A stretch of DNA of 64,000 nucleotides from Aureimonas flava (GTDB lineage: Bacteria > Pseudomonadota > Alphaproteobacteria > Rhizobiales > Rhizobiaceae), in assembly GCF_003583935.1 (NCBI RefSeq), contig NZ_QYRN01000001.1, positions 434,001 through 498,000 on the forward strand, in the 5' to 3' direction. The position numbers and the translations under genes were made by a program. Positions 13,913 to 40,640 of the stretch are shown piece by piece. Below the pieces are notes generated by a model. That model did no database searches, had not been told where the DNA came from, and saw only the letters and a list, made by a program, of their open reading frames with translations. Position 1 is the first letter of the stretch, and every line of letters starts with the position of its first letter.

Positions 13913-15138
13913 GCGTTCGGCACGAGGGCGCGGGGCGTTTCCTCGTCGCCAACGCGCGCTGGCTCGGCGGTGCGTTCCTCCTGTGCCTGTGCTCGTCGTT
14001 CGGGCAGACCTACTTCATCTCGCTGTCGGGCGGCGAGATCCGGCGCGAGCTGCAACTCAGCCACGGCGAGTTCGGCCTCCTCTACATGCTGGCGACGCTC
14101 GCCAGCGCCGCCACCCTGCCGTTTCTCGGGCGGGCCATCGATCGCTTTCCGACGCGCCGCGTCGCGAGCGCGACCGTGGTCGGGCTGGCTGCCGCCTGTG
14201 TCGTCATGGCAACGGTCCCCTCCGTTCCGGTTCTAGTGGTGGCCCTGTATCTCCTCCGCCTCTGCGGGCAGGGCATGATGTCCCAGACCGCCTTCACGGC
14301 GGTGGGGCGCTGGTTCGTCGCCAATCGCGGGCGGGCGGTGTCCTATGCCACGATCGGCTATCAGGCCGGCGAGGCGACGCTGCCGCTCATCTTCGTGGCC
14401 ACGGTCGGTCTCCTGGGCTGGCGCGGAAGCTGGTTCGCCTCCGCCGCGTTCCTGGTCGTGCTGGGCCTTCCGGCGATCTACGCCCTCGTCCGCCGCGAGC
14501 GCGACCCGCAGAGCACCATGGCCCCCGATCTGCGCCGACCGGCGGTGCGCGAGCGCATGCTCGCCGAGGTCGTGCGCATGCCGAGCTTCTACCTCCTGTG
14601 CACCGCCGTGGTGGCGCCGTCCTTCATCGTCACGACGATCTTCTTCCACCAGATCTACCTCGCCGATCTGCGCGGTTGGCCGGTGGAGCTGTTCGCCTCG
14701 GGCTTCGTGCTCATGTCCACGGCGACGGCGGCCTGCGCGCTGACCTGCGGCTGGCTGATCGACCGCTACACGGCGGTGCGCATCCTGCCGTTCTTCCTCC
14801 TCCCGCTGACCTTCGCGTGCCTTGCGATCTCGCAGATCGAATCGTCCGCGGCGATCTTCGTGTTCATGGGGCTCGTCGGCATCTCCAACGGCTTCGCCGC
14901 GACGCTCTTCGGCGCGCTCTGGCCCGAGCTCTACGGTGTGCGCCATCTGGGCGCGATCCGCTCGGTGGTCCTTTCGGCCATCGTCTTCGGCAGCGCGCTG
15001 GGCCCCGGCGTCACCGGCTACCTGATCGATCGCGGCGTCTCCTTTCCGTTGCAGATCGCGGTGATGGGGATCTACTGCCTGTGCGGGGCGGCGATGCTGG
15101 CGTTCTGGTCCCGCTGGCACGCCCGTCAGGCCGACTGA
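13909..15138 (+). CDS. MFS transporter
   Basis: A 409-residue, about 12-helix major facilitator. Between helices 2 and 3 the MFS loop motif appears as [12 protein letters not shown], and the second half carries a similar DRYTAVRIL. The closest general type is the oxalate/formate or nitrate-like MFS group; the substrate cannot be told. The GTG start at 13909 overlaps the stop of the small membrane protein gene. gltX follows after 43 bp. Confidence 0.8.
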
Positions 15139-19927: not shown

Positions 19928-20914
19928 TCAACCCCAGAGCGCCGGGCTCGGCGCGCCCACGGTCGAGCCCTCGTAGGCCAGCCCGTCCGCCCGATCCTCC
20001 GCCAGCAGGAGCGGTCCGTCCAGATCGCAGAGCTCGGCCTCCTGCGCGAGGAGCACGGCCGGCGCCATGGCGAGCGACGAGCCGACCATGCAGCCCGCCA
20101 TCACCCCGAAGCCGAGCCGGCGCGCTTCGCGCAGGAACCTCAGCCCCTCGGTCAGCCCGCCGGTCTTGTCGAGCTTGAGGTTCACGTAGTCGTAGCGGCC
20201 GACGAGGCTCGCAAGGTCGCCGCTGCCGTGCACCGATTCGTCCGCGCAGACCGGCACCGGCCTTGGCATCCGGGCAAGCATCTCGTCCTGCCCCGCCGGC
20301 AGCGGCTGCTCCACCACCGCCGCTCCGACCCCCGCCGCCGCCAGCATCAGCTCACGGATCGTTTCCGGCCGCCAGCCCTCGTTGGCGTCGATGATGAGTC
20401 GCGCACCCGGCGCCGCCGCGCGCACGGCCCGCATCCTTTCCGCATCGCCCTCCGGCCCGCCGACCTTGACCTTGAGGACGCTGCGCCCCCGCACGGCGGC
20501 GGCTGCCCGGTGCATCTCGTCGGCGGTGTCCAAGGAGATGGTGAAGGCCGTGTCCACGGCACGGGGGCGGGCGATGCCGAGCCGCCGGGCCACTCCGTCG
20601 CCGTCGCGCTTGGCCTCGAGGTCCCAGAACGCGCAGTCCAGCGCGTTGCGGGCCGCGCCGGCGGGCAGGAGGTCCTGCAGCTCCTGCCGCGTCGCGCCGG
20701 CCTCGACCGCGGATCGCGCACCCTCGATCGCCGCGCACACGCTCTCGACGCTCTCGCCGTAGCGCGCATAGGGCACGCATTCGCCTCGGCCTCGCGCGGC
20801 GCCTTCGTCGAGGGTGCAGACGACCACCACGGCCTCGGTCTTAGAGCCACGCGCGATGGTGAAGCGGCGCGCCAGCGGGAAGCGGTCCACTGTGACTGAA
20901 AGACGACGCGGCAT
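19928..20914 (-). CDS. dipeptide epimerase (L-Ala-D/L-Glu epimerase family)
   Basis: A 328-residue enolase-superfamily protein. The catalytic and metal residues are visible: KVKVGG (base 1), IIDANEGW and a following VVEQP (metal Asp and Glu), ADESVH (metal ligand), and KLDKTGG (base 2). Relatives epimerise L-Ala-D-Glu from cell-wall peptides so that it can be degraded. The substrate is inferred from the family. A GAGGA lies just before two tandem ATGs (20917 and 20914); the second has the better spacing. It is divergent from the mla operon and shares with it an operator-like region. In this window murI at 57.9 kb is the other D-Glu gene. Confidence 0.85.
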   Translation of the reverse strand: MPRRLSVTVDRFPLARRFTIARGSKTEAVVVVCTLDEGAARGRGECVPYARYGESVESVCAAIEGARSAVEAGATRQELQDLLPAGAARNALDCAFWDLEAKRDGDGVARRLGIARPRAVDTAFTISLDTADEMHRAAAAVRGRSVLKVKVGGPEGDAERMRAVRAAAPGARLIIDANEGWRPETIRELMLAAAGVGAAVVEQPLPAGQDEMLARMPRPVPVCADESVHGSGDLASLVGRYDYVNLKLDKTGGLTEGLRFLREARRLGFGVMAGCMVGSSLAMAPAVLLAQEAELCDLDGPLLLAEDRADGLAYEGSTVGAPSPALWG

Positions 20915-20943
20915 CATATTTCCTCGACAAACTCGGGTGGGCA

Positions 20944-21009
20944 TTGCATCGCACACGATGCAAGCTAACTCTGCCTTCACAAACTTTAGCCGGCGATGCG
21001 AGCGCATCG
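20944..21009. promoter_or_regulatory. operator-like array of four CGATGC/GCATCG half-sites
   Basis: Two inverted repeats lie between dgcA-type and mla genes. The first is TTGCATCG-CACA-CGATGCAA (20944-20963), perfect 8-bp arms with a 4-nt centre. The second is CGATGC-GAGC-GCATCG (20994-21009). The half-sites begin at 20946, 20956, 20994 and 21004, so the members of each pair are 10 bp apart, one helical turn, and pairs are 48 bp apart. This suggests binding of a dimeric or tetrameric regulator to both. The regulator is unknown. Confidence 0.5.
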
Positions 21010-21050
21010 GCGAGATTTTTCGACTGCCAACCTCCGACCCGAGCGATCGC

Positions 21051-22241
21051 ATGCTGGATACTCCGCAACCCGAAAGGGCACCGAAGAAGGATGGTCGCCC
21101 GGACGGCGCCGCCCCTTCGCTCGACGCGGAGAAGGGCAATGGCGGCGTCGTGCTGCATTTCGCCGGCGACTGGCTCGCACGCACCATCGGCGGCGTGGAG
21201 CAGGTCGTCGACGAGACGCGGAAGGCCGACCTCGGCAAGGCCGTGACGTTCGACCTCTCCGGAGTGGGGCGGCTCGACACGTCCGGCGCGCTGCTGATCG
21301 AGAGGCTGGAGCGCGGCCTCGGCGAGAAGGGTGCCGAGATCCGCTCGGAAGGGCTCGGCCATGCCGAGACCATGCTGTTCGAGGCGGTGCGCAAGGCGCT
21401 CGACACGCCTCGGCCGGAGGTCAAGGCGAAGCGGACCTCGAAGGTCGCCGATTTCTTCGCCGCCATCGGTGCCAACGTCTTCGCGGTGGGTCGCGAATCG
21501 ATGATGGGCCTCAACATCGTCGGCGCCTCGCTCTACGGCGCCGGCCGACGCATCACCGGCAAGCAGCGCTGGCGTCCGGCGGCGATCGTCAGCCAGATGG
21601 ACCGGATGGGCGTGCGCGCCGTGCCGATCATCGCGCTGATGAGCTTCCTGATCGGCGCCGTGATCGCGCAGCAGGGCGCCTTCCAGCTTCGCAACTTCGG
21701 CGCGGAGATCTTCGTGGTCGATCTGGTGGGCATCCTCCAGCTCCGCGAGATCGGCGTCCTCCTCACCGCCATCATGATCGCCGGCCGCTCCGGCAGCGCC
21801 ATCACGGCGGAGATCGGCTCGATGCGGATGCGCGAGGAGGTCGACGCGCTTCAGGTCATCGGCCTCAACCCGATCGGCGTCCTGGTGTTTCCGCGCATCG
21901 TGGCGCTGACGCTGGTGCTGCCGCTCCTCGCCTTCATCGCCGACATCGCGGGCCTACTGGGCGCGATCACCGTGACCTGGATCTATTCCGGCATCACGCC
22001 CGACGCCTTCATCACCCGCATGCGCAGCGCCATCGACATCGGAACCGTGTTCGCCGGCCTCATCAAGGCGCCGTTCATGGCCATCGTGATCGGCGTCGTC
22101 GCCTCGCTCGAAGGTCTGAAGGTCGGCGGCAGCGCCGAAAGCCTCGGCCGCCACGTGACCGCCTCGGTGGTCAAGTCCATCTTCCTTGTCATCCTCCTGG
22201 ATGCCGTGTTCGCGATCTTCTATGCCGCCATCGGATACTGA
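21051..22241 (+). CDS. mlaE: MlaE-family ABC permease with N-terminal STAS domain
   Basis: A 396-residue inner-membrane permease of the MCE/Mla lipid transport system. An STAS-like domain (about 28-118, FDLSGVGRLDTSGALLIERL) is fused to the MlaE domain (about 150-396) with FQLRNFGAEIFVVDLVGILQ and the EIGSMRMREEVDALQVIGLNP coupling loop. In E. coli the STAS part is a separate protein, MlaB; fusion is usual in alphaproteobacteria. The ATG at 21051 is chosen; an upstream in-frame ATG at 20958 would run through the operator-like repeats with poor codon bias. It overlaps mlaF by 20 bp. Confidence 0.9.
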   Translation: MLDTPQPERAPKKDGRPDGAAPSLDAEKGNGGVVLHFAGDWLARTIGGVEQVVDETRKADLGKAVTFDLSGVGRLDTSGALLIERLERGLGEKGAEIRSEGLGHAETMLFEAVRKALDTPRPEVKAKRTSKVADFFAAIGANVFAVGRESMMGLNIVGASLYGAGRRITGKQRWRPAAIVSQMDRMGVRAVPIIALMSFLIGAVIAQQGAFQLRNFGAEIFVVDLVGILQLREIGVLLTAIMIAGRSGSAITAEIGSMRMREEVDALQVIGLNPIGVLVFPRIVALTLVLPLLAFIADIAGLLGAITVTWIYSGITPDAFITRMRSAIDIGTVFAGLIKAPFMAIVIGVVASLEGLKVGGSAESLGRHVTASVVKSIFLVILLDAVFAIFYAAIGY

Positions 22242-23052
22242 CACCAAACCCCGCTCCGAGGACCACGACGTCATCATCCGCGCGACGGACGTGACGGTGC
22301 GCTTCGGCTCCAAGACGATCCTCGACGGCCTGTCGCTCGACGTGCGGCGCGGCGAGATCCTTGGATTCGTCGGCGCTTCGGGAACCGGCAAGTCCGTTCT
22401 CCTGCGCACGATCCTCGGCCTCAACGCCAAGCAGGGCGGCACGATCGAGGTCTTCGGCGTCGACTACGAGCGCGCCGACGAGGCCGCGCGCCTCAGCGTC
22501 GAGCAGCGTTGGGGCGTCCTGTTCCAGCAGGGCGCGCTGTTCTCCTCGCTGACGGTGCTCGAGAACATCCAGGTGCCGATGCGCGAGTATCTCGACATCT
22601 CGCCCAAGCTGATGGACGAACTGGCGCGGTTGAAGATCGACCTCGTCGGGCTGGCCGCGGACGCGGCCGACAAATACCCGTCCGAACTTTCGGGCGGCAT
22701 GATCAAGCGCGCCGCGCTCGCCCGCGCGTTGGCCCTGGACCCGGACATCGTGTTCCTGGACGAGCCGACCTCGGGCCTCGACCCGATCGGCGCGGCGGAC
22801 TTCGACGAACTCATCATGACGCTGCGCGATACGCTCGGGCTGACGGTGTACATGGTGACGCACGACCTCGACAGCCTTTTCCAGGCCTGCGACCGAATCG
22901 CGGTGCTGGGCAAGAAGAAGGTCCTCGTGGAAGGGCCGCTCCAGACGATGCTGGACTTCGACGACGACTGGGTTCGGTCGTACTTCCACGGCAAGCGGGC
23001 TCGCTATGTCGTGCCCAAGGACGAGAATCCGTACTACAGCGAGAACGAGTGA
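22222..23052 (+). CDS. mlaF: MlaF-family ABC transporter ATPase
   Basis: A 276-residue ATPase that powers lipid movement by the MlaE permease. Visible: Walker A GASGTGKS, Q-loop FQQGALFSSLTVLEN, signature LSGGM, Walker B IVFLDEPTSGLDP and the switch His in THDLDS. The C-terminal extension ends YVVPKDENPYYSENE, a form usual in rhizobia. The gene overlaps mlaE by 20 bp, and its stop shares one base with the mlaD start (TGATG). Confidence 0.93.
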   Translation: MPPSDTDTKPRSEDHDVIIRATDVTVRFGSKTILDGLSLDVRRGEILGFVGASGTGKSVLLRTILGLNAKQGGTIEVFGVDYERADEAARLSVEQRWGVLFQQGALFSSLTVLENIQVPMREYLDISPKLMDELARLKIDLVGLAADAADKYPSELSGGMIKRAALARALALDPDIVFLDEPTSGLDPIGAADFDELIMTLRDTLGLTVYMVTHDLDSLFQACDRIAVLGKKKVLVEGPLQTMLDFDDDWVRSYFHGKRARYVVPKDENPYYSENE

Positions 23053-24719
23053 TGGAAACCAGAGCCAACTACATCCTCGTCGGTGTGTTCACCGTCGCGG
23101 TGCTTCTGGCGAGCTTCGGCTTCGTCTACTGGTCCGCGAACGTTTCCGATCGCGACTCGCGCATTCCCCTCCTGGTGCGGATCGAGGGCTCGGTGTCCGG
23201 CCTCAGCCAGGGCAGCCAGGTGCTGTTCAACGGCCTTGCGGTCGGTTCGGTCACGAACCTGCGCATCGACCCCAACAATCCGCGCGTCGTGATCGCCACC
23301 ACGCAGATCGACCGCGCCACGCCCGTCACCACCTCGACCACTGCCACGATCGGCTTCCAGGGCCTGACCGGCATCGGCTTCATCGGGCTCACCGGCGGCA
23401 ACGTCAACGATCGCAACATCATCGAATCCGCGATGGAGCAGGGCGCGACGCCGGTCATCACCGCCAATCCGTCCGACGTCACCGACATCCTGGCGACGGC
23501 GCGCGACATCGCCGACCGCGCCAACAACATCCTCGGAGAGTTCGAGCAGATCGTGCAGGCGATCGGGCCGGCGGTGCGCACCACTGCCGACAACGTGGCG
23601 CAGACCTCCACCAACGTGCGCACCTTCACCGACAGCCTCGCCTCCAACGCCGACCAGATCGACGACTTCCTGGCCAGCCTCGCCGAGCTTTCGCGCAGCG
23701 CCAACAACGTGGCGCTCCAGCTTCCCGATCTGATGAGCCGGGCCAGCACCTTCATCGGCGCGCTGGACGTGGCGGCAGTCAACCAGTCGATCCAGAACGT
23801 CGCGGCGATCACGCAGTCGCTGCGCGACCAGACCGGCAACGTGACGCGCGCGATCGAGTCCGTCTCCACGGCCGTCTCCGGCTTCGGCGCCGTCGGCGAC
23901 ACGATCAACCAGAACCTGCCGAGCGTTCAGGACTTCCTGGCGCGTCTCGGCCCGATCTCCGAGACCGCCACCAGCGTGGCGACGCGCCTCGACTCCACGC
24001 TTGCCGACGTGTCTCAGATCACCGCGGCGGTGAACCCGGATCAGGTGCGCTCGACCATCGACAGCGTCAGCGGCTTCACCGGCGCGCTGAACGCCCAGTC
24101 GGGCCGCGTCGGCTCGGTTGTCGCCGGCGCCGACACCGCGCTGCAGACCCTCAACGGCGCGCTGGAAGGGCTGAACGGCACGCGCGCCCGCATCGACACG
24201 CTGCTCGCGGCTGTCAGCGCGTCGACCATCAACCAGGCGGTCAACGACGTGTCGTCGGCCACCAACAACATCGCGGCCGCCGCCGATTCCGTTCGCGGCG
24301 TGGCGGACAACATCAATTCGCGCCGCGAGGACATCAACAGCATCATCACCAATGTCGAGGACACGAGCGCCAGCCTGAAGGTGGCGTCGAACCAGGTCCA
24401 GACGCTGATCAACTCGGTCAACGGGCTGGTGAACAGCCCGGACGGGCAGGGCCTCACCACCGAGGCGCGGGCGACGCTGCAGAGCATCCGCCAGACGGCG
24501 GAGACGATCCAGCGCGCGATCGGCCCGATCTCGGCCAACCTGCAGAACTTCACCGGCCAGGGCCTCCAGGACGCGCGCAACCTCATCCGCGAGACGACGC
24601 AGGCCGTCACCCGGATCGAGCGGGCGATCATCGATCTCGCCAACAACCCGAGCCGCGTGATCTACGGCGGCGACGGCGGCGGCGAGGTGCGTCAGTTCGA
24701 CGGCCGGACGCGGCGCTGA
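23052..24719 (+). CDS. mlaD: MCE/MlaD-family lipid-binding protein with long helical tail
   Basis: A 555-residue protein. One membrane helix (about 7-28) anchors it in the inner membrane; the MCE domain (about 38-118) has VSGLSQGSQVLFNGLAVGSV and the GLTGIGFIGL pore-loop type motif. About 430 residues of Asn-, Thr- and Ser-rich amphipathic helix follow, likely forming a periplasmic barrel or tube as in long MCE proteins such as PqiB or LetB-type needles, though here with a single MCE domain. E. coli MlaD has only about 180 residues. It is translationally coupled to mlaF. Confidence 0.9.
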   Translation: METRANYILVGVFTVAVLLASFGFVYWSANVSDRDSRIPLLVRIEGSVSGLSQGSQVLFNGLAVGSVTNLRIDPNNPRVVIATTQIDRATPVTTSTTATIGFQGLTGIGFIGLTGGNVNDRNIIESAMEQGATPVITANPSDVTDILATARDIADRANNILGEFEQIVQAIGPAVRTTADNVAQTSTNVRTFTDSLASNADQIDDFLASLAELSRSANNVALQLPDLMSRASTFIGALDVAAVNQSIQNVAAITQSLRDQTGNVTRAIESVSTAVSGFGAVGDTINQNLPSVQDFLARLGPISETATSVATRLDSTLADVSQITAAVNPDQVRSTIDSVSGFTGALNAQSGRVGSVVAGADTALQTLNGALEGLNGTRARIDTLLAAVSASTINQAVNDVSSATNNIAAAADSVRGVADNINSRREDINSIITNVEDTSASLKVASNQVQTLINSVNGLVNSPDGQGLTTEARATLQSIRQTAETIQRAIGPISANLQNFTGQGLQDARNLIRETTQAVTRIERAIIDLANNPSRVIYGGDGGGEVRQFDGRTRR

Positions 24720-24859
24720 CCCGCAGCGCCGCCCGCCGGCGGGTGTTCCGCCGGCAACAGTGTCGGGCGAAGCGGCCGGAAGAGGCGCTGCGCCCCTTTG
24801 AAACCCACCGGAAGCGCGCCAGCTTGCGTGTTCCGCCTGTAAATGCGTCGAGGATCCAG

Positions 24860-25456
24860 ATGGCACGAAACGCTGCGGCAAGATGGTCCGGCCTGGTTGT
24901 GGCGGCGCTCGCGCTGTCGGCCTGCGCCTCGCTCAAGACACCGCCGGCGACGTTCGAGCTGTCGCCGCCGCGCGCCGCGGCCGTCGGCTCCGCGTCCACG
25001 CGGGCGCAGATCCTGCTGCCCGAGCCCACGGCGACGCGCACGCTCGACAGCCAACAGATCGTCGTCAAGCCGACGCCGCAGACCATCGAAGGCCTGGCGG
25101 ACAGTCAGTGGAGCGACCGGCTTCCGCGCCTCGTGCAGCTTCGCCTGCTCCAGGCGTTCCAGAACACGGGGCGCATCGGCGCCGCCGGCGTGCCGGGGCA
25201 GGGCCTCGCCATCGACTACCAGGTCGTCACCGAGTTGCGCCGATTCGAGATCGCGTTCCAGCCGAGCGCGACGGCCGTGGTCGAGATTTCGGTCAAGGCG
25301 TTGAACGACCGCACCGGCGTGGTGCGCGGAAGCCGCGTCTTCCAGGCGGCGGTTCCGGTCGCGAACGGAGACCCGTCGGCCTACGTGACGTCGCTCGACG
25401 CGGCCTTCTCGCAGGTGGCCGACGAGATCGTCGGCTGGATGATCCGCCTGATCTGA
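24860..25456 (+). CDS. ABC-type transport auxiliary lipoprotein
   Basis: A 198-residue lipoprotein with lipobox LSACAS (lipidated Cys22) and an ABC_trans_aux-type domain, the PqiC/DUF330 group that partners MCE transporters at the outer membrane. GAGGA lies about 5 bp before the ATG. It is the fourth gene of the mla operon, 140 bp after mlaD, and is followed by a strong terminator. It probably links the MCE tube to the outer membrane; this is inferred from relatives. Confidence 0.85.
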   Translation: MARNAAARWSGLVVAALALSACASLKTPPATFELSPPRAAAVGSASTRAQILLPEPTATRTLDSQQIVVKPTPQTIEGLADSQWSDRLPRLVQLRLLQAFQNTGRIGAAGVPGQGLAIDYQVVTELRRFEIAFQPSATAVVEISVKALNDRTGVVRGSRVFQAAVPVANGDPSAYVTSLDAAFSQVADEIVGWMIRLI

Positions 25457-26144: not shown

Positions 26145-29100
26145 TCAGTCGAAGCGTCCGGAGGCGTGGGCCAGCATCGTGTAGACCTTGCCGGTGTCGG
26201 AGGTCAGGTAGGACTTGCTCCGCGTGTTGTCCGGGTCGCGGCGCGAGGCATCCTGGAGGAGCGACTCGAAGTCCGCGATGTAGCGGTCCACCGCGTGGCG
26301 GAAGTCCGCGTCCCGCTGGTACTTGCGGCGGATCTCGTCGAACGTCTGCTGACCCTTCATCGTGTAGAGGCGACGGGTGAAGACGTTCCGTTCGCCGTTG
26401 CGATAGCGGTCCCAGAGTTCCACCGACACGTTGTGGTCGATCGCACGGGCGATATCGACCGACAGCGAGTTGAGCGAGTCCACCACATGCGCCTGACTGC
26501 GCTCGGCCCGCGCCGCCGGCGCGGCCGAGGCGGGCGCCTCGACGTTCGCCTCGGGCTCCTCGTCCTGCGAGGCGCGACGCAGGAGGTCGGACACCCAGCC
26601 GCCCTCGGTCTCGTCCGCGGCGGGACGCGCCGTCGGCGCGTCGCGCGCCACGCGCTCGGCAGGCGCAGCCGGCCGGAGCGGCGAGAACTCGCCCGTGCGG
26701 GCCGGCTGAACCTCGGACGAGGTCTGCTGCGACGACAGCATACGGGCCGCGTCCGGGCCGCCGCGCATATCGTAGGCGAGGTTGCCGCCGACCGCTGGCG
26801 GTGCAGCGCGGCGTTCCGCCTCGGCGGGGGCGGACGGTGCGCGCGCGCCACGGTTGTCCGTGGCAGGCTTGCGCACGTCCATCGCCCGACCGGAGGTCGA
26901 GACGATGTCGCTCAGCTCGCGCAGCGCGCGGATCTGGTCGGACACCGCACGGCGCATCGCACGGGTGCTCTCGCGGGTTTCCTCCGGCAGCTCGAACACG
27001 CCCCGGCGGATCTCCGTGCGTGCCGTCTCCAGCTCGCGGCGCATGTCGCCGGCAGCCCGACGCATCTCAGACGTGGCCCCGGCGAACTTCTCCGAAGCCT
27101 CCTCGATCACCGTGCGCAGGGCCTCGCGGACCTGCTCGGCGGCGGCCTGGGAACGGCGCTCGGTCTCCTCGAGCTGCTGCTCGGCTTCCCCGAGGCTGGT
27201 CCCCAGCTCGCCGGTGACCGTTCCGGCCACCGCGCGGGCACGCGCTTCCGCCTGCGAGAACAGTCGCTCCACGACGCCCTCGAAGGAGTTGAGCATGGCC
27301 GAAATGTCGCGCGAGCGGTCGGCCAGGCTGCCGGCCAGCAGGGTGAGCCCCTCGTGCCGCTCTTCCAGCGTGCCCTGCAGGTTGGTCTGCGTCTCGTCCA
27401 GGAGACGGGCGGCGTCCGACAGGAGACGCCCGTGCTCTGCGAACTTCTCGGTCATCCCGCCGATCTGCGTGAACGCCGTCGAGGTGACGCCGTCCATGCG
27501 CGCGATGGACTGCTCGAGGCGGTCGGAGGAGGAGGTGATCTCGTCCTCGACGCGCATCGCCTCAGTGCGGAAGCGGTCGCGCGTGTCAATCAGCGAGGTC
27601 TCGACGCGGCTGATGGAGCCGCTGGCGTCCTCCAGCATTGTCCGCAGCGTATCGTTGCTGTTGTCCAGGCGGTCGAGGAGCTGCGTGACCTCCTGGCCGA
27701 GTTGGCCACGGGCGCCGGCGACGCGGCTGACCGTTTCCTCGGAGCGCGCGTCCAGGGCCGACAGGAGTTCGGCCGACGAGCGACCGAGGCGCTGAACCGT
27801 CTCCTCCGTGCGCTGGATGAAGTCCGCGACCACGGCCGCGTTCTCCGCGCGCAAGCGCTCGGCCACCTGGTCGGACGTGCCTTCCAGGGCCTCGATCGCG
27901 GCGGAACCGGTCTCGGACAGGCGCTGGACGATCGGTCCGGTGCGGGTCTCGATCAGGTCGGCCAGCTCCGCGTTGCGCTCGGCCAGGAGCTGCGACAGGG
28001 CGCGCGTGCGCTCGGTCATGCGCTCGCCGACACGGTCGGCGCTCTCCGACAGGTCGCGCTCGGACGAGGCGACGCGTTCGGCGATGTCGGTGCCGAACCC
28101 GGCACTGACCTCGACCATCTGGTCGCGGGCGCGCTCGGCTTCGAGACGAAGCGCCGTGGCCGCGGCCGAAAGACCGAGCACCACCTGCGAGCCTTCGCCC
28201 GCCAGCGCGGCCCGCGCCTCCTCCGCCTCGCGCAGGATCTCGCCCGAGACCTGCGCGGTTTCCTCGCGAATGCTGCCGGCGACCGACAGGATCTCGCCGC
28301 GGATGCGCGAGGACGTGCCCTCGATCTCCTCGCGTAGGGCGGCGACGGAGCGCGACAGGTCGTCGTTCAGGCCGACCGACGTGCTGGCGAGCATCGAGGA
28401 CAGGCGATCGGACAGGGCGCCGAGCTCGGCGACGAACCCGTCCGTGCGCTCGCCCAGGAGCGACACGCTCTGGCCGGTCTCGTCGCGGATGAGGCCCGCC
28501 GTCCCGCGAACGCGCTCGGCGAAGCTCTCGGCGTCGGCCAGGAAGCGCTGGCGCGCGCTCTCGGCCTGCTCGGCCATGGACAATGCCACAGCGTCGATCT
28601 CGCCGACGATGCGGGCGGCATCGGTGGCCATGCGCTCGCGCGCATCGCCCGAGCTCGCCTCGAAGCGGTCGGTCGCACCGGTGAGCTCGGCGACGAGCTG
28701 TCCGGCCGTCTCGCCGATCTGCTCGCGGGCACGATCCGTCTCGCCGCGCATAGCGTCCACGACGCGCGCCACTTCGCCGGTGATGCGGCCCGCATCGTCC
28801 AGGAGGTTGCGGCGCGACAGCTCGCCGGCTTCCCGGAGCCTGGTGCTGGCGTTCCCGAACTCGGCACCAATCGCCGCCGTCTGTTCCGCGACCTCGCGAC
28901 GCAGGACGTCGGACTGCTCGCGGACCTGCACGGCCGCGGAGGCGACCTCTTCGCGGATCTGCACGGCGTCGGCCGCGAACTGCTCGCGGGTCTTGTCGCC
29001 GATGAGACGGAGGCGGTCGGAGGCGTGGTCGATGTCCCCGGACAGCGACTCCGCCTGCTGGACCACGATCTGGCGCGCGGCCTCGGCATCCTGGCGCAGG

Positions 29101-32100
29101 CGGTCGGCCATGGCCTCCAACCCGCCCGCGAACTCGCCGGCCACCTCGGACAGGCGCTCGCGCGCCGCTTCGGCTTCGCTGCGCATGGCGAGCGAGGCGC
29201 CGCCGATCTGCGTCGTGAAGGCGTCGCCCTCGAGGGCCAGCGCCTCGCGCAGCTCTTCCGCGTCGGCGCGCATGCGGCCTGCGACGTCGCTGACCTGACG
29301 GCCGAGCTGCTGTGCCTCGGCGGCGAACCGCTCCTGCGCCTCCTGGCCGACGCGCCGGATCGACTCGGCGGAGAGCGAGATGCCCTCGGCGATCTGCGCG
29401 CTCTCGCCGGTCAGCTCGTTGCGCGCCGCCTCGCTGGTCTCCTGGACCGACTGGATCACCGCGCGGATGCGCTCTTCGAAGCGCTCCGCCTCGGCCACGA
29501 ACTCCGACTGTGCCTCCGCCGAGGAGGTGCGGAAGGTCGAGCCCAGCTCGCCGATGATGATGGCGATCTTCTGCGTCTCGGTCTCGAGGCCGGCACGAGC
29601 CCGGTCGGCCTCCTCGCCCATGCGGGCGGAGGCGGCGACGATCGACTCGCGCAGCGTGTCGGCGATCATGGAGGTGCGGCCCGAAAGGGTGCGCTCCACG
29701 TTGCCGAGACCGCGTTCCAGGCTGGCGTTGATGGCGCCGGTGCGCTCGTCCAGCGCCGCCGAGAGGCTCACGGTGCCGGCGGCGAGGGCGGCCGCGATCT
29801 CCTCGCGCTTGGTCTCCAGCGCGGTGGTCACGTTGCCGGCGCTCTGCTCCAGCACGCGGCGCACGTCGTCGGCCCGGTCGCCGAGCGTCGCGGCCAGCGA
29901 GCCGGCGACGTCCTCGATCGCGGACGTGAGGTTGTCGCGGCGCTCGTCCATGGCCGTCGCCAGCAGGCCGTCGGATTCGACCAGCGCCTGACGCAGGGCC
30001 GCGATGCGCGTTTCCAGCGTGGAGAGGATGGTCGCGTTGCCGCTCTCGAGCGTCGAGGCGATGCGGCCCGCGCGATCGTCGAGGTCGGCGATCAGCGAGC
30101 TCTCCGAGGCGTCCACCATGCGGCGCATGGAGACGACGCGCTCGTCCAGACCGTCCAGGATGGCGCTGCGCGCACCCTCCACCGCGTCGCGCAGCGCGGA
30201 GCCGCGGCCGTCGAGGCCCTGGATCAGCAGCGACAGCGCATTCTCCACCGCGGAAAGCACGGTGCCGGCATTGTGGTCGATCTCGCGGGCGAAGCGCGCC
30301 GTGCGCTCGTCGAGGCTTTCCGTCAGCCCGACATGCGAGTTGTCCACCGCTGACGACAGGTCGCGGACCCGAGCCGCGAGCTCGTTGACGACGCGCTCGA
30401 CCGACTGCTCGAAGCTCGCCTCGATGCCCGCCGTGCGGGTCTCGAGCCCGGCCAGGAACTCCTGACGACGGTCGTCGCCGGTCATCAGCGCCGCTTCGAG
30501 GCGACCGATCACGTCGTCTCCGACGCGCGAGGTATAGAGCTCCAGCGAGTGAGACAGCCGCTCGCCGCTGTCGCGCATGAAGGCTTCGCTGGCGGCCAGA
30601 CGGTCCGCGAGGCCGGTGGTCAGCGTCTCGTTGCGCTCGTCGAACTCGGTGACGAAGCGCCGGGTGCGCTGCTCCAGCATGCGATCGAGGGCTTCCAGCC
30701 GCGTCTCGAACTCGCCGGACAGAACCTCGGTGCGCTGGTCGAGCGCGACCTCGATGGCGGATCCGCGCTCGGCAAGAAGCGCGTTCATGCGGTCCATGCG
30801 CGACTGGAAGCGCTGGTCGGCCTGGCTGTCCGCCGCGGAGAGGGCGGCTTCGAGGCGGTCGGCACGGGCATCGACGCCCGACACCATGCGGCCCTCCGCG
30901 CTGCCAATGATCGCCTCCATGCGGGTGACGTTCTGCTCGATCGACTGCGCGAGCGCGGTGCCGCGTTCCTCGAACTGCGCCAGCAGGGTCTGCTGGGCGA
31001 AGGCGAGGGAGGTGTCGATGTCTGCCGCGCGATCGCTCAGCACGGCGCCCAGCGAACCGATCTGCGCGTCGAAGCTCGATCGAACATGCTCGGAATGGGC
31101 GGCGAAGCTCGCGTCGATCCCCTGGCGGGCCGACTCGGCCACGGCGGCGAGGTCGCCGCGTCCGCCGTCGATGGCCTGGCGGATCTCCTGGGTGCGGTCG
31201 GCGACGTCGCGCGAGAAGTTGCCGGACGTTTCGGAAAGCACCACGGCGAAGCGTTCGGCCGACCGATCGATCGCGAGGGCCTGCCCCTCGATCGTCTGAA
31301 CGAGCTGGGCGCCCTTGCCCGACAGAGCGCCCTCGAGCTGCGCGAGGCGCTCGTCGAAGCGGCCGAGCACGTCCTCGTTGCGCGCGCCGAGGAGGGCGGT
31401 CGCGTTCTGGATGCGGGTGTCGAAGGCCTCGTCGAGATTGCGCAACAGGCGCTCGGTCTCCGACGCCAGATGCGAAAGCCGCTGGTCCAGGCCCCCGGTG
31501 AGCGAGGCGATCAGCGTCTCGTTCTCCGCGAGCATGCGGGCGGAACGCTCGTCCAGCGTCTCGCCGAGACGACGGTCGAAACTCTCGGACCCGGCGGCGA
31601 GGCTCTCCGTGCGCTCGGCCAGCGTCCGCAGGACGGTCTCGTTCGAGTCGCGCAGGCGCTCGCCGGCCTGCTCGCCGATCGCCGAAACGCGCTGGACGAG
31701 ATCGTCGGAGCGCGCCTGGAGCTCTTCGGCCTGGGCCCGCAGCGAGCGCGCCAGGTCCTCGCCCGTCTGGGCGAGGCGGCGCGTCGTCTCCTCGGCCGTC
31801 TCGCCGATGCGCTGGATGACGCTGGCGCTGCTGCCGCTCAGCTCGGCCTCGATCTCGCGGCTGCGGTTGTCGAACATGGTGGTCAGCGTCTGGCTACGGT
31901 CCTCGTAGGCCTGCGACAGCGCGGCCCCGCGCTCGTCCAGCAGCGAGTGGAATCGCTGGGTGGCCTCCTCGACCTGCCGGATGATGCGGGTGGAGGCGGT
32001 GTCGACGTCGCCGATCAGCCGGTCGTGCGAGCCGACCACGGAGGACCGGAGACGCTCCGCGTGCGAGAGCATCGCCTCGCGCTCGCTCGACAGGTCGTTG

Positions 32101-33146
32101 ACCAGGGAACGGATCTTCACCTCGTTGTCGGCATAGGCCCGCTCGAGCGAAGACACTTCCGAATGCACGATGCCCTCGAGCTCGCCCATGCGCGACAGAG
32201 CGCGCTCGACGCCCTCGCCGAGCGCGGCGACCTCGCGGCGGATGGCGTTGCCGACGCTGGTCACCTTCTCGGAAGCGATGTTCTCGGGCTCGGCCAGCCG
32301 TAGCGCGACCTCGGCGAGCGAACGGCTCATCAGCCGCAGGTCCTGCGAGCGCCGCACCATCACGGCGAAGGCGAGGATCAGGAGGGCAGGGAGCACCACG
32401 GCAAGGGTCGCGAGCGCCAGCGTCGGCGCGGCGGGGGCGGGCGAGCCGTTGGCGGTCAGGAAGGCGAACGAGGCGGCGCCGGCCAGCACAACCCAGGCGG
32501 CCGCGACCACTCCGCCGATCACCAGCGTCCGGCGGGAGGACCGGCGGGTGAGGAGGGCATCCGCCATCACGGCGGCGGAACGCTGCTCGTCGTTGGCGAC
32601 GGACGACTTGAAGTCACGCGTGCGAGAGGCGCGGATCGGCTCGGGGGCGGCGGCGGGTTCCTGCCGTGCGGCCGGCGGCGGGGTGGCAACGCGCGCGCGA
32701 GGGGCGTCGTGCGCCCCGGTGCTGGCGGTTCCCGCCGCGATGGCGGCCGCCACGGGCGGAACCGCGCTGCCGATCCGGTCGGCGGAGGCGGGGGGGGCGA
32801 TGCGGTCGGAGTCGCCCATGGAGGCGATCAGCTCCTCCTCGGCGAGCTGGAACTCGGGCTCGGGCGGAACGGCGGTCTCGCCGTCGGCGGAAAGGGGGGA
32901 CGCTTCGTGCTGCTCGGCCGCGCTGGCGCTCGTGGCCTCCTCCACCGAGCGGTCGAACTCGGTGAGGGCGAAGTCGATGTTCATTTCGGACGGGGCGAGC
33001 GTGTCGCGCTCCACATGCCCTTCGGCGGTTCCCGAGACGCTGCCTTCCTCGGCCTCCGCTCCGAGAAAATCCGTGTCCTGAAGCGCAGCCTCCAGCTCGG
33101 TGACTGCTTCGTCCGATAGCTGTTCAGCCGTCTTGATCTTCGACAT
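26145..33146 (-). CDS. rgsE: giant growth-pole-ring (GPR/RgsE-type) coiled-coil membrane protein
   Basis: A 2,333-residue protein encoded by 7 kb. The N-terminal ~205 residues are acidic, then Pro/Ala-rich. Two membrane helices follow (about 207-230 and 241-264), so both ends face the cytoplasm. About 1,800 residues of charged helix follow, with 11-residue spacing of [LFY][DE]xR units, for example LDERG/YEDRS/FDNRS near residue 400 and LDQRT/LEQRT/FDERN later, spaced 11 or 22. A Pro-rich linker then leads to a compact C-terminal domain (last ~115 residues, with VELWDRYRNGERNVFTRRLY). Size, two helices, apolipoprotein-like repeats and this C-terminus match the Agrobacterium GROWTH POLE RING protein and Sinorhizobium RgsE, which organise polar wall growth. 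The assignment is by recognition, not by alignment. Confidence 0.8.
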   Translation of the reverse strand: MSKIKTAEQLSDEAVTELEAALQDTDFLGAEAEEGSVSGTAEGHVERDTLAPSEMNIDFALTEFDRSVEEATSASAAEQHEASPLSADGETAVPPEPEFQLAEEELIASMGDSDRIAPPASADRIGSAVPPVAAAIAAGTASTGAHDAPRARVATPPPAARQEPAAAPEPIRASRTRDFKSSVANDEQRSAAVMADALLTRRSSRRTLVIGGVVAAAWVVLAGAASFAFLTANGSPAPAAPTLALATLAVVLPALLILAFAVMVRRSQDLRLMSRSLAEVALRLAEPENIASEKVTSVGNAIRREVAALGEGVERALSRMGELEGIVHSEVSSLERAYADNEVKIRSLVNDLSSEREAMLSHAERLRSSVVGSHDRLIGDVDTASTRIIRQVEEATQRFHSLLDERGAALSQAYEDRSQTLTTMFDNRSREIEAELSGSSASVIQRIGETAEETTRRLAQTGEDLARSLRAQAEELQARSDDLVQRVSAIGEQAGERLRDSNETVLRTLAERTESLAAGSESFDRRLGETLDERSARMLAENETLIASLTGGLDQRLSHLASETERLLRNLDEAFDTRIQNATALLGARNEDVLGRFDERLAQLEGALSGKGAQLVQTIEGQALAIDRSAERFAVVLSETSGNFSRDVADRTQEIRQAIDGGRGDLAAVAESARQGIDASFAAHSEHVRSSFDAQIGSLGAVLSDRAADIDTSLAFAQQTLLAQFEERGTALAQSIEQNVTRMEAIIGSAEGRMVSGVDARADRLEAALSAADSQADQRFQSRMDRMNALLAERGSAIEVALDQRTEVLSGEFETRLEALDRMLEQRTRRFVTEFDERNETLTTGLADRLAASEAFMRDSGERLSHSLELYTSRVGDDVIGRLEAALMTGDDRRQEFLAGLETRTAGIEASFEQSVERVVNELAARVRDLSSAVDNSHVGLTESLDERTARFAREIDHNAGTVLSAVENALSLLIQGLDGRGSALRDAVEGARSAILDGLDERVVSMRRMVDASESSLIADLDDRAGRIASTLESGNATILSTLETRIAALRQALVESDGLLATAMDERRDNLTSAIEDVAGSLAATLGDRADDVRRVLEQSAGNVTTALETKREEIAAALAAGTVSLSAALDERTGAINASLERGLGNVERTLSGRTSMIADTLRESIVAASARMGEEADRARAGLETETQKIAIIIGELGSTFRTSSAEAQSEFVAEAERFEERIRAVIQSVQETSEAARNELTGESAQIAEGISLSAESIRRVGQEAQERFAAEAQQLGRQVSDVAGRMRADAEELREALALEGDAFTTQIGGASLAMRSEAEAARERLSEVAGEFAGGLEAMADRLRQDAEAARQIVVQQAESLSGDIDHASDRLRLIGDKTREQFAADAVQIREEVASAAVQVREQSDVLRREVAEQTAAIGAEFGNASTRLREAGELSRRNLLDDAGRITGEVARVVDAMRGETDRAREQIGETAGQLVAELTGATDRFEASSGDARERMATDAARIVGEIDAVALSMAEQAESARQRFLADAESFAERVRGTAGLIRDETGQSVSLLGERTDGFVAELGALSDRLSSMLASTSVGLNDDLSRSVAALREEIEGTSSRIRGEILSVAGSIREETAQVSGEILREAEEARAALAGEGSQVVLGLSAAATALRLEAERARDQMVEVSAGFGTDIAERVASSERDLSESADRVGERMTERTRALSQLLAERNAELADLIETRTGPIVQRLSETGSAAIEALEGTSDQVAERLRAENAAVVADFIQRTEETVQRLGRSSAELLSALDARSEETVSRVAGARGQLGQEVTQLLDRLDNSNDTLRTMLEDASGSISRVETSLIDTRDRFRTEAMRVEDEITSSSDRLEQSIARMDGVTSTAFTQIGGMTEKFAEHGRLLSDAARLLDETQTNLQGTLEERHEGLTLLAGSLADRSRDISAMLNSFEGVVERLFSQAEARARAVAGTVTGELGTSLGEAEQQLEETERRSQAAAEQVREALRTVIEEASEKFAGATSEMRRAAGDMRRELETARTEIRRGVFELPEETRESTRAMRRAVSDQIRALRELSDIVSTSGRAMDVRKPATDNRGARAPSAPAEAERRAAPPAVGGNLAYDMRGGPDAARMLSSQQTSSEVQPARTGEFSPLRPAAPAERVARDAPTARPAADETEGGWVSDLLRRASQDEEPEANVEAPASAAPAARAERSQAHVVDSLNSLSVDIARAIDHNVSVELWDRYRNGERNVFTRRLYTMKGQQTFDEIRRKYQRDADFRHAVDRYIADFESLLQDASRRDPDNTRSKSYLTSDTGKVYTMLAHASGRFD

Positions 33147-33631: not shown

Positions 33632-33952
33632 ATGACCGCGATCATCTTCCTCGCCCCCGACGGCACCCGCTACGAAATCGACGCGCCCGACGGCTCCAGC
33701 GTGATGCAGGCGGCGATCCGCAACGACGTGCCGGGGATCGACGCCGATTGCGGCGGCGCCTGCGCCTGCGCGACGTGCCACGTCTATGTGGACGAGGCGC
33801 AGATCGGACAGCTGGCGCCAATGGAGGCGATGGAGGAGGACATGCTGGACTTCGCGCTGGACGTGCGTGCGAACTCGCGCCTGTCTTGTCAGATCCGGGT
33901 ACGGCCCGAGTTGCGCGGGCTCACGCTCACGGTGCCCCCGCGCCAGGCGTGA
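33632..33952 (+). CDS. 2Fe-2S ferredoxin (adrenodoxin type)
   Basis: A 106-residue ferredoxin. Four cluster ligands fit C-x5-C-x2-C-x36-C: C40, C46, C49 and C86 (DCGGACACATC and LSC), the adrenodoxin/Isc pattern. It passes electrons in the cytoplasm, for example to iron-sulfur assembly or a P450-type oxygenase; its partner is not in the window. It stands alone between the giant rgsE gene and a convergent DUF922 gene that ends 17 bp away. Confidence 0.9.
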   Translation: MTAIIFLAPDGTRYEIDAPDGSSVMQAAIRNDVPGIDADCGGACACATCHVYVDEAQIGQLAPMEAMEEDMLDFALDVRANSRLSCQIRVRPELRGLTLTVPPRQA

Positions 33953-40454: not shown

Positions 40455-40485
40455 GCCGGTCGAGGTCGATCACGCGAAACGAAAT

Positions 40486-40509
40486 CGGGCCGCTGATGCG
40501 GCCCGTTTT
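40486..40509 (+). terminator. intrinsic terminator of dksA
   Basis: CGGGCCGC (40486-40493), loop TGAT, GCGGCCCG (40498-40505), then TTTT and a further T-rich tail. It starts 32 bp after the dksA stop. Confidence 0.9.
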
Positions 40510-40640
40510 CGTTTGCGCGGATCGTTGCCGCGCTTCGTCCATCGCGATCCCGGAACGCGGTGACCTTCGCGGCCGACCGGCGGCCCATCGGGCCGCCGCA
40601 CACCTGTCGGCGCTGTGCGATCGCGTCGGCCGTCCTGGCC

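What the first reader, a model, noticed from the sequence alone, without database searches (positions are those of the whole stretch)
26145..33146. Giant rgsE/GPR gene with visible 11-residue repeats
The longest gene by far (2,333 residues). The helix-rich part repeats an [LFY][DE]xR unit at 11- and 22-residue spacing (for example LDERG, YEDRS, FDNRS, each 11 apart), the hendecad pattern of apolipoprotein-like amphipathic helices. With two N-terminal membrane helices it should form a long cytoplasmic ring or rod at the growing pole. Recognition as GPR/RgsE is from memory of the family. The repeat pattern itself is read here.
Basis: partly seen in the sequence, partly recalled or inferred. Interest (0 to 1): 0.75.

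Follow-up and report, generated by a model that had tools for sequence, protein, structure and literature searches.

The report
Giant pole-organising scaffold, TipN's relative
This giant gene is the Aureimonas version of the protein that organises tip growth in Agrobacterium and its kin, and its two conserved ends indicate that it belongs to the same family as TipN, the protein that marks the new cell pole in Caulobacter.

Summary
26145-33146 (-) encodes 2,333 aa with two N-terminal membrane helices and a nearly proline-free helical rod. The [LFY][DE]xR motif occurs 24 times, at 11- and 22-residue spacings far above chance. Refinement: the pure 11-residue register dominates residues ~400-1250; the second half is mostly a 29-residue unit (11+11+7).

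Identity: the single-copy ortholog of S. meliloti RgsE / Agrobacterium GPR, in a genome without a recognisable MreB. So: a new member of a known kind.

What I add: the conserved parts are the two ends, a membrane hairpin with juxtamembrane region and a ~110-residue helical C-terminal domain without a Pfam model here. Both match the ends of Caulobacteraceae TipN (profile-profile E 1.4e-15 and 2.3e-9; controls). The domain occurs in 155 of 385 sampled alphaproteobacterial genomes, 143 of them with MreB. In four genomes of one family it sits on 330-377-aa proteins almost without a rod. Print calls TipN Caulobacter-specific (PMC4460556) or absent from most Alphaproteobacteria (PMC5182065), though PMC8546619 notes GPR's similarity to TipN. 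Likely mechanism: a membrane-anchored pole landmark with a lengthened rod.

The parts
26145..33146 (-). gpr/rgsE-type gene, 2,333 aa, single copy
   Evidence: Pfam PF01442 2.3e-50
32031..32546 (-). N-terminal module (about residues 201-372): two membrane helices (207-225, 246-264) plus juxtamembrane helix; homologous to TipN N-terminal module
   Evidence: hydropathy; hhalign vs TipN 172 columns, Prob 98.6, E 1.4e-15; reversed control Prob 0.8
29397..31949 (-). rod zone 1 (residues 400-1250): pure 11-residue repeats with most of the [LFY][DE]xR units
26967..29396 (-). rod zone 2 (residues 1251-2060): mainly 29-residue repeats (11+11+7), with an 11-residue stretch at about 1560-1800
26487..26966 (-). 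Pro/Ala-rich, probably disordered linker (residues 2061-2220; 9.4% Pro)
   Evidence: composition
26148..26486 (-). conserved all-helical C-terminal domain (residues 2221-2333), not covered by any Pfam match found here
   Evidence: alignments A1, A2; profile searches; models; vs TipN E 2.3e-9

Best explanation
The gene encodes the GPR/RgsE polar-growth organiser of an Aureimonas species (Hyphomicrobiales). It is one form of a class-wide alphaproteobacterial family that also contains TipN. Shown here: a membrane hairpin with juxtamembrane helix at the N-end; a coherent hendecad rod of about 1,800 residues; a conserved C-terminal domain (helical in the models) behind a Pro-rich linker; homology of both ends to TipN; no MreB found in the genome at E<=1e-40. 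Inferred: the hairpin anchors the protein in the inner membrane at the newest pole; the rods bundle into a ring or platform that sets the size and spacing of the growth zone; and the C-terminal domain docks partners (candidates are Tol-Pal, RgsA and the FtsN-like RgsS) that bring wall synthesis to the pole. In MreB-containing relatives such as Caulobacter the same two-ended scaffold is a pole landmark. In the MreB-less order the rod was lengthened, largely by whole 11-, 18- and 29-residue quanta, and the protein organises tip growth.
For: Collinear homology with S. meliloti RgsE. 43 genomes of the order (own included) match; none of the 20 no-match rows shown is from the order (256 rows not shown). 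No MreB at E<=1e-40 in the own genome and the four same-order genomes of the class sample, all five of which have the domain. GPR vs TipN: N-end E 1.4e-15 (172 columns), C-end E 2.3e-9 (114 columns); the best of 30 column shuffles scored 18.9 and 20.6 against 100.6 and 59.7; reversed TipN profiles give Prob 0.8 and 1.2 against GPR, and GPR coil segments at most 3.7 against TipN. The TipN set is anchored by a Caulobacteraceae protein 84-95% identical to 15 of 120 listed records named tipN; relatives were found in 24 of 25 Caulobacteraceae genomes. Gene order: MlaE permease and ABC ATPase homologs near the gene in 6 of 17 loci read outside the order (L113, L114, L115, L125, L126, L127). An MFS_1_like transporter gene lies downstream of both tipN loci read and of 22 of 83 GPR-type loci (weak, and absent from the window). 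Rod indels: 51 of 146 gap lengths are multiples of 11 (about 13 expected if uniform) and 19 are exactly 29. Published: GPR forms a polar ring and its C-terminal deletions lose function (PMC8262873); RgsE interacts with TolQ (PMC7327166); TipN interacts with Tol-Pal and passes from division plane to new pole (PMC7403779).
Against: No localisation or binding was tested. In S. meliloti RgsE is not seen at the septum (PMC7327166), unlike TipN. TipN's C-end is only 15-26% identical to the window's (14 rows of A2), so common function cannot be read from sequence; the A1 profile did not report the tipN of G356. Long (about 2,000 aa) members also occur in MreB-containing genomes outside the order (for example G037, G263, G340, G281), so rod length is not tied to MreB loss. 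In GPR the C-terminal 332 residues are dispensable for ring foci (PMC8262873), so the C-end is not the ring-former. The Mla and ferredoxin neighbours of gpr were not found near the two tipN loci read. The own genome has three hits over the Pfam MreB_Mbl cut-off (9.5e-16, 3.0e-7, 3.3e-7); their ORFs (660, 586, 501 aa) are too long for MreB and I take them for other actin-like ATPases.
Confidence: 0.75

Rival explanations
1. Apolipoprotein model (published view): the rod binds or sequesters lipid through its amphipathic helices, so the protein organises membrane lipid supply at the growing pole.
For: Pfam Apolipoprotein 2.3e-50 and ApoLp-III 2.7e-12; the only two PDB sequence matches at E<=0.001 are apolipoprotein A-IV; rod hydrophobic fraction 0.247 vs 0.256 in the matched apoA-IV stretch; the gene lies beside an MlaE-type lipid-transporter operon; PMC8262873 favours it.
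Against: 3 prolines in 1,795 rod residues vs 3.6% proline in the apoA-IV stretch; only two of eleven positions are strongly hydrophobic (0.82 and 0.71), a narrow stripe; a hendecad helix of any function could match this Pfam model (inference); the rod is the least conserved part.
Confidence: 0.2
2. The likeness of GPR and TipN is convergent: two membrane helices followed by coil look alike in any profile comparison, and TipN is a separate family.
For: Pairwise identity of the C-ends is only 15-26%; helical, compositionally biased proteins give false matches; an intended control with another membrane-plus-coil family failed technically.
Against: Both ends match independently and in order; column-shuffled, reversed and coil-segment controls do not match; intermediate families link them (GPR-OTH C-end E 4.6e-46, OTH-TIP C-end E 7.9e-16); one match per genome in 144 of 155 positives.
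Confidence: 0.05
3. Polar role is lineage-specific: the family is old, but the ancestral function was something other than pole marking (for example general envelope tethering), and pole organisation arose separately in Caulobacterales and Hyphomicrobiales.
For: Many members sit in genomes with MreB and are uncharacterised; the 330-377-aa forms of family f25 almost lack a rod; TipN is dispensable while GPR/RgsE loss is severe (PMC5182065, PMC8262873, PMC7327166).
Against: The two characterised branches share polar localisation, Tol-Pal contact and effects on where wall growth occurs (PMC7403779, PMC7327166, PMC8262873, PMC4460556).
Confidence: 0.2

Closest known systems
RgsE (SMc00190) of Sinorhizobium meliloti and GPR (Atu1348) of Agrobacterium tumefaciens
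   Same: Architecture, size (2,089 / 2,115 aa in print), PF01442 repeats, two membrane helices, collinear C-terminal domain (77% identity to the S. meliloti 4H41 copy), MreB-less order
   Different: Longer (2,333 aa); rod sequence diverged (35% global identity vs 29-32% with the coil shuffled); ring formation untested here; GPR sequence itself not compared
TipN of Caulobacteraceae (new-pole landmark)
   Same: Homologous membrane hairpin/juxtamembrane module and homologous C-terminal domain in the same order; helical rod between
   Different: Rod about 400 residues, most often a 25-residue repeat and period ~3.60 rather than 11/29 and 3.65-3.67; host has MreB; C-ends 15-26% identical
Unnamed 330-377-aa hairpin proteins of family f25 (L137, L140, L142, L143)
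   Same: Both ends homologous (hhalign to GPR: N Prob 92.1, C Prob 83.7; to the other members: C Prob 96.2)
   Different: Almost no rod; function unknown
Human apolipoprotein A-IV
   Same: 11/22-residue amphipathic repeats (recalled); PDB sequence match E 1.9e-4
   Different: Secreted, proline-punctuated, single small domain; no membrane hairpin and no C-terminal domain of this kind (recalled)

Membership tests
GPR/RgsE | Two N-terminal transmembrane helices, bulk cytoplasmic | tested here: met
   Residues 207-225 and 246-264; topology itself inferred
GPR/RgsE | Very long continuous helical region made of PF01442-like repeats | tested here: met
   PF01442 2.3e-50 with 14 stretches; 3 prolines in 1,795 residues; period 3.66
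GPR/RgsE | Collinear sequence homology to a named RgsE, including the C-terminus | tested here: met
   L098 (S. meliloti 4H41):
GPR/RgsE | Host belongs to the MreB-less, polar-growing order | tested here: met
   Aureimonas relatives best; no MreB at E<=1e-40. Three PF06723 hits over the cut-off (best 9.5e-16) lie in ORFs of 501-660 aa, too long for MreB. Polar growth of this host is inferred
[quoted passage not shown]
   needs microscopy
TipN family (by common ancestry) | Homologous N-terminal hairpin/juxtamembrane module | tested here: met
   hhalign Prob 98.6, E 1.4e-15; shuffled and reversed controls do not match
TipN family (by common ancestry) | Homologous C-terminal domain | tested here: met
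   hhalign Prob 96.2, E 2.3e-9; the A1 profile, without any TipN, finds TipN of G278 at 2.3e-6 and of G063 at 1.1e-4, but not that of G356
TipN family (by common ancestry) | Marks division plane and new pole, needed for polarity | not testable with these tools
   needs localisation and complementation
Apolipoprotein (lipid-binding) family PF01442 | Profile score above the curated cut-off | tested here: met
   171.4 bits vs cut-off 90
Apolipoprotein (lipid-binding) family PF01442 | Lipid binding by proline-punctuated amphipathic helices | tested here: inconclusive
   Proline punctuation absent; lipid binding not testable
A known fold for the C-terminal domain | Confident match to a solved structure | tested here: inconclusive

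The most novel reading that the evidence does not exclude
GPR, RgsE, TipN and the short hairpin proteins are one orthologous, Alphaproteobacteria-wide pole-landmark family. It is defined by two conserved ends, a membrane hairpin with juxtamembrane helix and a helical C-terminal domain, around a rod whose length (nearly 0 to about 2,400 residues) and repeat (25 residues in TipN and most outside members, 11/29 in the window's order) are free to evolve, often in whole-repeat quanta. The polar-growth ring of the MreB-less order would then be an enlarged TipN: a landmark that once steered the MreB machine became the organiser itself when MreB was lost. TipN would be neither Caulobacter-specific nor absent from most Alphaproteobacteria.
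Probability: 0.7. Interest if true: 0.68.

Novelty: new member of a known kind. Interest (0 to 1): 0.57.

Why it matters
How MreB-less bacteria focus wall growth at one pole is an open question, and GPR has been studied through its apolipoprotein-like rod. Placing it in one family with TipN, with two defined conserved ends, says where to look for its function (ends, not rod), gives TipN relatives across the class, and makes the idea that polar growth was built on an older pole landmark testable by end-swaps. It also runs against printed statements that TipN is Caulobacter-specific or missing from most Alphaproteobacteria. The rod's different repeat in the window's order (11/29 against 25) is a concrete structural prediction: a different supercoil twist.

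Tried and rejected

Naming the domain: no Pfam or NCBIfam match over a cut-off falls on it. NCBIfam gave only weak coil-type hits for the whole protein (best antiphage ZorA, 0.0003, 19.2 bits against a cut-off of 190), taken as chance. PF28217 and PF28175 stand on some relatives in the protein database, but my scan of such a protein (P0005) did not report PF28217; what they cover is unknown to me.

Rod length as a consequence of MreB loss: rejected, since ~2,000-aa forms occur with MreB. Repeat type as a simple function of rod length: not borne out, since L131 (1,635 aa) keeps 3.565.

Shared flanking genes between gpr and tipN: the Mla and ferredoxin genes are not near the two Caulobacteraceae loci read (one genus). 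An MFS_1_like gene is downstream of both, and of 22 of 83 GPR-type loci at 25-34% identity, but no ORF of the window matched it; MFS is a large family, so I count this as a hint only.

The chemoreceptor control for the hairpin-plus-coil comparison failed. In one search no sequences were extracted and a stale result was printed; at least three of the four ORFs taken look like wrong frames. I do not use it; the reversed, shuffled and coil-segment controls stand instead.

The first ORF pick for some loci was wrong (for example L141, L144, L145) and was replaced. In one search I left out 6 relative loci with truncated or unclear ORFs (L044, L051, L078, L091, L100, L104) and 10 TipN loci that were partial or duplicates (L168, L169, L179-L186). 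One search left out the same six GPR loci, the TipN entries without both stop codons, and L168 and L185. The indel pairs share sequences and are not independent.

Prior print: searches for TipN with RgsE (0 papers), TipN with 'growth pole ring' (3), TipN with GPR and polar growth (3), TipN with Agrobacterium (13), TipN with apolipoprotein (97; by title the 20 listed look unrelated), TipN with Rhizobiales (8), Atu1348 (2). None of the passages I read defines shared domains; not every listed paper was opened. The first GPR paper (2019, PMC6561148) is not held, so I cannot say that it does not.

Full report
1. The observation. The ORF 26145..33146 (-) is 2,333 aa from ATG, the longest listed in the window (next 887 and 884 aa), with one match in its genome, a 4.09-Mb assembly of 26 contigs in which the window is G000:C11:434001-498000. 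Its nearest named relatives are Aureimonas species (C-terminal 151 aa up to 93% identical), so the host is an Aureimonas or very close to it (inference). Two membrane helices lie at 207-225 and 246-264. The motif [LFY][DE]xR occurs 24 times; 5 pairs lie at lag 11 and 9 at lag 22, and none of 5,000 random placements reached either number. Hydrophobic residues over 1,795 rod residues give one peak at 3.66 residues with power 87.2 (maximum of 100 shuffles 12.0), so the hendecad register runs coherently through much of the rod.

2. A refinement. The two halves differ. Residues 400-1250 carry the pure 11-residue pattern (strongest lags 44, 33, 55, 66, 22, 11), while 1250-2060 is led by lag 29, that is 11+11+7, with an 11-residue stretch at 1560-1800. 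Folded on 11 in zone 1, two positions are strongly hydrophobic (0.82 and 0.71) and two weakly (0.38 and 0.29). The rod has 3 prolines in 1,795 residues. Among relatives the rod often changes length by repeats: of 146 alignment gaps in 53 nearest-neighbour pairs, 51 are multiples of 11 (about 13 expected if uniform), 19 are exactly 29, 8 exactly 18 and 6 exactly 58 (pairs share sequences).

3. Identity. Pfam: Apolipoprotein 2.3e-50 and ApoLp-III 2.7e-12. The S. meliloti 4H41 locus L098 has a collinear ORF of 2,094 aa from its first Met (RgsE is 2,089 aa in PMC7327166). blastp gives E 2.5e-129 over 1,886 columns; global identity is 35% (682 of 1,936), against 29-32% when the L098 coil is shuffled (10 shuffles). 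The C-terminal domain is 77% identical. RgsE is the published GPR homolog (PMC7327166, passages). Own genome: no MreB at E<=1e-40 with the Caulobacter sequence. The Pfam MreB_Mbl model has three hits over its cut-off (9.5e-16, 3.0e-7, 3.3e-7) in ORFs of 660, 586 and 501 aa; MreB is about 350 aa, so these are probably other actin-like ATPases such as DnaK (inference).

4. The conserved ends. The last ~110 residues form a domain conserved at 57-77% identity in the 120 database hits listed and 22-84% across alignment A1 (35 rows), with D11, G31, F36, F62, F73 and G99 invariant in A1. No Pfam or NCBIfam match over a cut-off falls on it in the proteins scanned. With A1 it is found in 150 of 385 genomes drawn from the class; with the wider profile A2 (43 rows), in 155 of 385, 108 of 277 genera, 144 of the 155 with one match. 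In a draw of 378 genomes from the phylum, 102 match, and all 102 rows are own, same family, same order or same class. These include 16 same-family (own included) and 27 same-order genomes; the 20 no-match rows shown are all 'same class' and seem sorted by kinship, so no genome of the order appears to lack it, but 256 no-match rows are not shown. First-look limits make such counts lower bounds: G063 and G356 were missed and found.

5. MreB. The Caulobacter MreB sequence (PDB 4czf; that its organism is C. crescentus is recalled) matches 354 of the same 385 genomes at E<=1e-40. By comparing the two lists, 143 of the 155 domain-bearing genomes have MreB. The 12 without are the five of the window's order (G000, G070, G189, G283, G361) and G043, G074, G099, G166, G171, G188 and G216; four of these seven are under 90% complete. 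(20 of the 31 MreB-negative genomes are named in the output; the other 11 I inferred from handles missing in the match list.) So the family is not tied to MreB loss and is probably older.

6. TipN. Only three genomes of the sample, all family f66, have MreB 93-96% identical to the Caulobacter query; the next highest shown is 78%. In f66 the A1 profile, built without any TipN, hits the C-terminus of an 838-aa ORF in G278 (2.3e-6) and an 863-aa ORF in G063 (1.1e-4), but did not report the tipN of G356. The G278 protein is identical to a record named 'hypothetical protein [unclassified Brevundimonas]' and 84-95% identical to the 15 of 120 listed records named tipN, all Brevundimonas; relatives occur in 24 of 25 Caulobacteraceae genomes. 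Profile-profile comparison of independent alignments (78 GPR-type, 17 other, 20 TipN sequences; after redundancy removal 33/17/19 for the N-end, 19/17/19 for the C-end): GPR vs TipN N-end 172 columns, Prob 98.6, E 1.4e-15, score 100.6 (best of 30 column shuffles 18.9); C-end 114 columns, Prob 96.2, E 2.3e-9, score 59.7 (best shuffle 20.6); both also through the other members. E-values are for single comparisons. Reversed profiles: Prob 0.8 and 1.2 for GPR vs TipN, at most 18.2 for any pair; GPR coil segments against TipN ends: Prob at most 3.7. Four proteins of family f25 (330-377 aa; unnamed) carry both ends with hardly any rod: N Prob 92-94, C Prob 82-96, scores 38-59 against at most 19.1 in 20 shuffles each. 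f25 ORFs run from 329 to 481 aa.

7. Twist. Dominant hydrophobic period: GPR-type 78 sequences, median 3.645 (10-90% 3.625-3.665), leading lags 22, 29, 11; TipN 20 sequences, median 3.597, leading lag 25; others 17 sequences, median 3.575, leading lag 25. Two ~2,000-aa outside members (L119, L123) lie at 3.625, but L131 (1,635 aa) stays at 3.565, so lineage counts for more than length. By standard coiled-coil geometry (recalled) values above ~3.6 mean right-handed supercoils, so the rods of the order should twist differently from the others.

8. Neighbours. Tail-to-tail with the gene lies an MlaE permease (PF02405, 1.1e-70), an ABC ATPase and an ABC_trans_aux protein. Homologs of permease and ATPase lie within ~5 kb of the gene in 6 of 17 loci read outside the order (L113, L114, L115, L125, L126, L127), and a divergent Fer2 ferredoxin gene in L116, L117, L118 (same order), L125 and L130. 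This supports orthology between GPR and the 700-1,000-aa forms. Near tipN neither was found in the two loci read (L148, L149). An MFS_1_like transporter gene (PF12832) lies ~0.7 kb downstream of tipN in both and ~5-9 kb (2 kb in L117) downstream of the gene in 22 of 83 GPR-type loci, mostly convergent (25-34% identity), but not in the window: a hint of shared ancestry of the region, no more.

9. Mechanism. From print: GPR forms six foci in a 200-nm ring near the growth pole; loss gives round cells; slight excess gives multiple poles; removal of 10 or 221 C-terminal residues impairs or abolishes complementation, while foci form without the last 332 (PMC8262873, parts 1-4 of 6 read). RgsE overproduction branches cells; RgsE interacts with RgsA, RgsS and TolQ (PMC7327166, passages). 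TipN goes from division plane to new pole and interacts with Tol-Pal (PMC7403779, passages), and regulates MreB at the division plane (PMC4460556, passages). I therefore read the protein as a membrane-anchored landmark/scaffold: hairpin as anchor, rod as spacer and self-assembly element, C-terminal domain as docking module. That the 221-residue deletion removes this domain and its Pro-rich linker is inferred, since the relatives aligned end with the domain and the A. tumefaciens sequence was not fetched. A fully extended 1,795-residue helix would be about 270 nm (1.5 A per residue, textbook), so the rods must fold or bundle to fit 50-nm foci.

10. Known or new. As a gene it is a new member of a known kind. 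PMC8546619 already writes that GPR has 'similarity to' TipN and PMC13170164 calls them 'analogous' (passages). Against that, PMC4460556 calls TipN Caulobacter-specific, PMC5182065 says most alphaproteobacterial genomes lack TipN, and PMC7327166 reports distant RgsE homologs in Emcibacterales and Rhodospirillales and does not contain the word TipN (passages).

Noticed in passing
window 20814-25456 (+): MlaE permease, ABC ATPase and an 816-aa ABC_trans_aux protein tail-to-tail with the gene; permease and ATPase linkage kept in 6 of 17 loci outside the order. A possible lipid-transport link to the pole organiser.
   Followed up: partly
L148 10068-11279 (-) and L149 1723-2937 (+): MFS_1_like transporter gene downstream of tipN, with relatives downstream of the gene in 22 of 83 GPR-type loci, not in the window.
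   Followed up: partly
window 33632-33952 (+): Divergent Fer2 ferredoxin gene, also near the gene in L116, L117, L118, L125 and L130.
   Followed up: partly
L137, L140, L142, L143 (family f25): 330-377-aa proteins with two membrane helices and a diverged copy of the C-terminal domain, almost without a rod.
   Followed up: partly
G043 (L156): A 3.4-Mb, 100% complete genome outside the order with a 986-aa member and no MreB at E<=1e-40: a possible second MreB-less lineage.
   Followed up: no
L044 and L051: In Jiella pelagia and Aurantimonas manganoxydans the ORF at this place is only 725 and 533 codons; frameshift, assembly error or real break not examined.
   Followed up: no
window 14257-14334 (+) and 40458-40541 (+): ARAGORN reports a tRNA-SeC and an undetermined tRNA; either may be a false call.
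   Followed up: no
G344 and ten other genomes: 11 of 155 positive genomes hold more than one match to the domain; some second matches are in 330-440-aa ORFs, hinting at a short paralogue.
   Followed up: no
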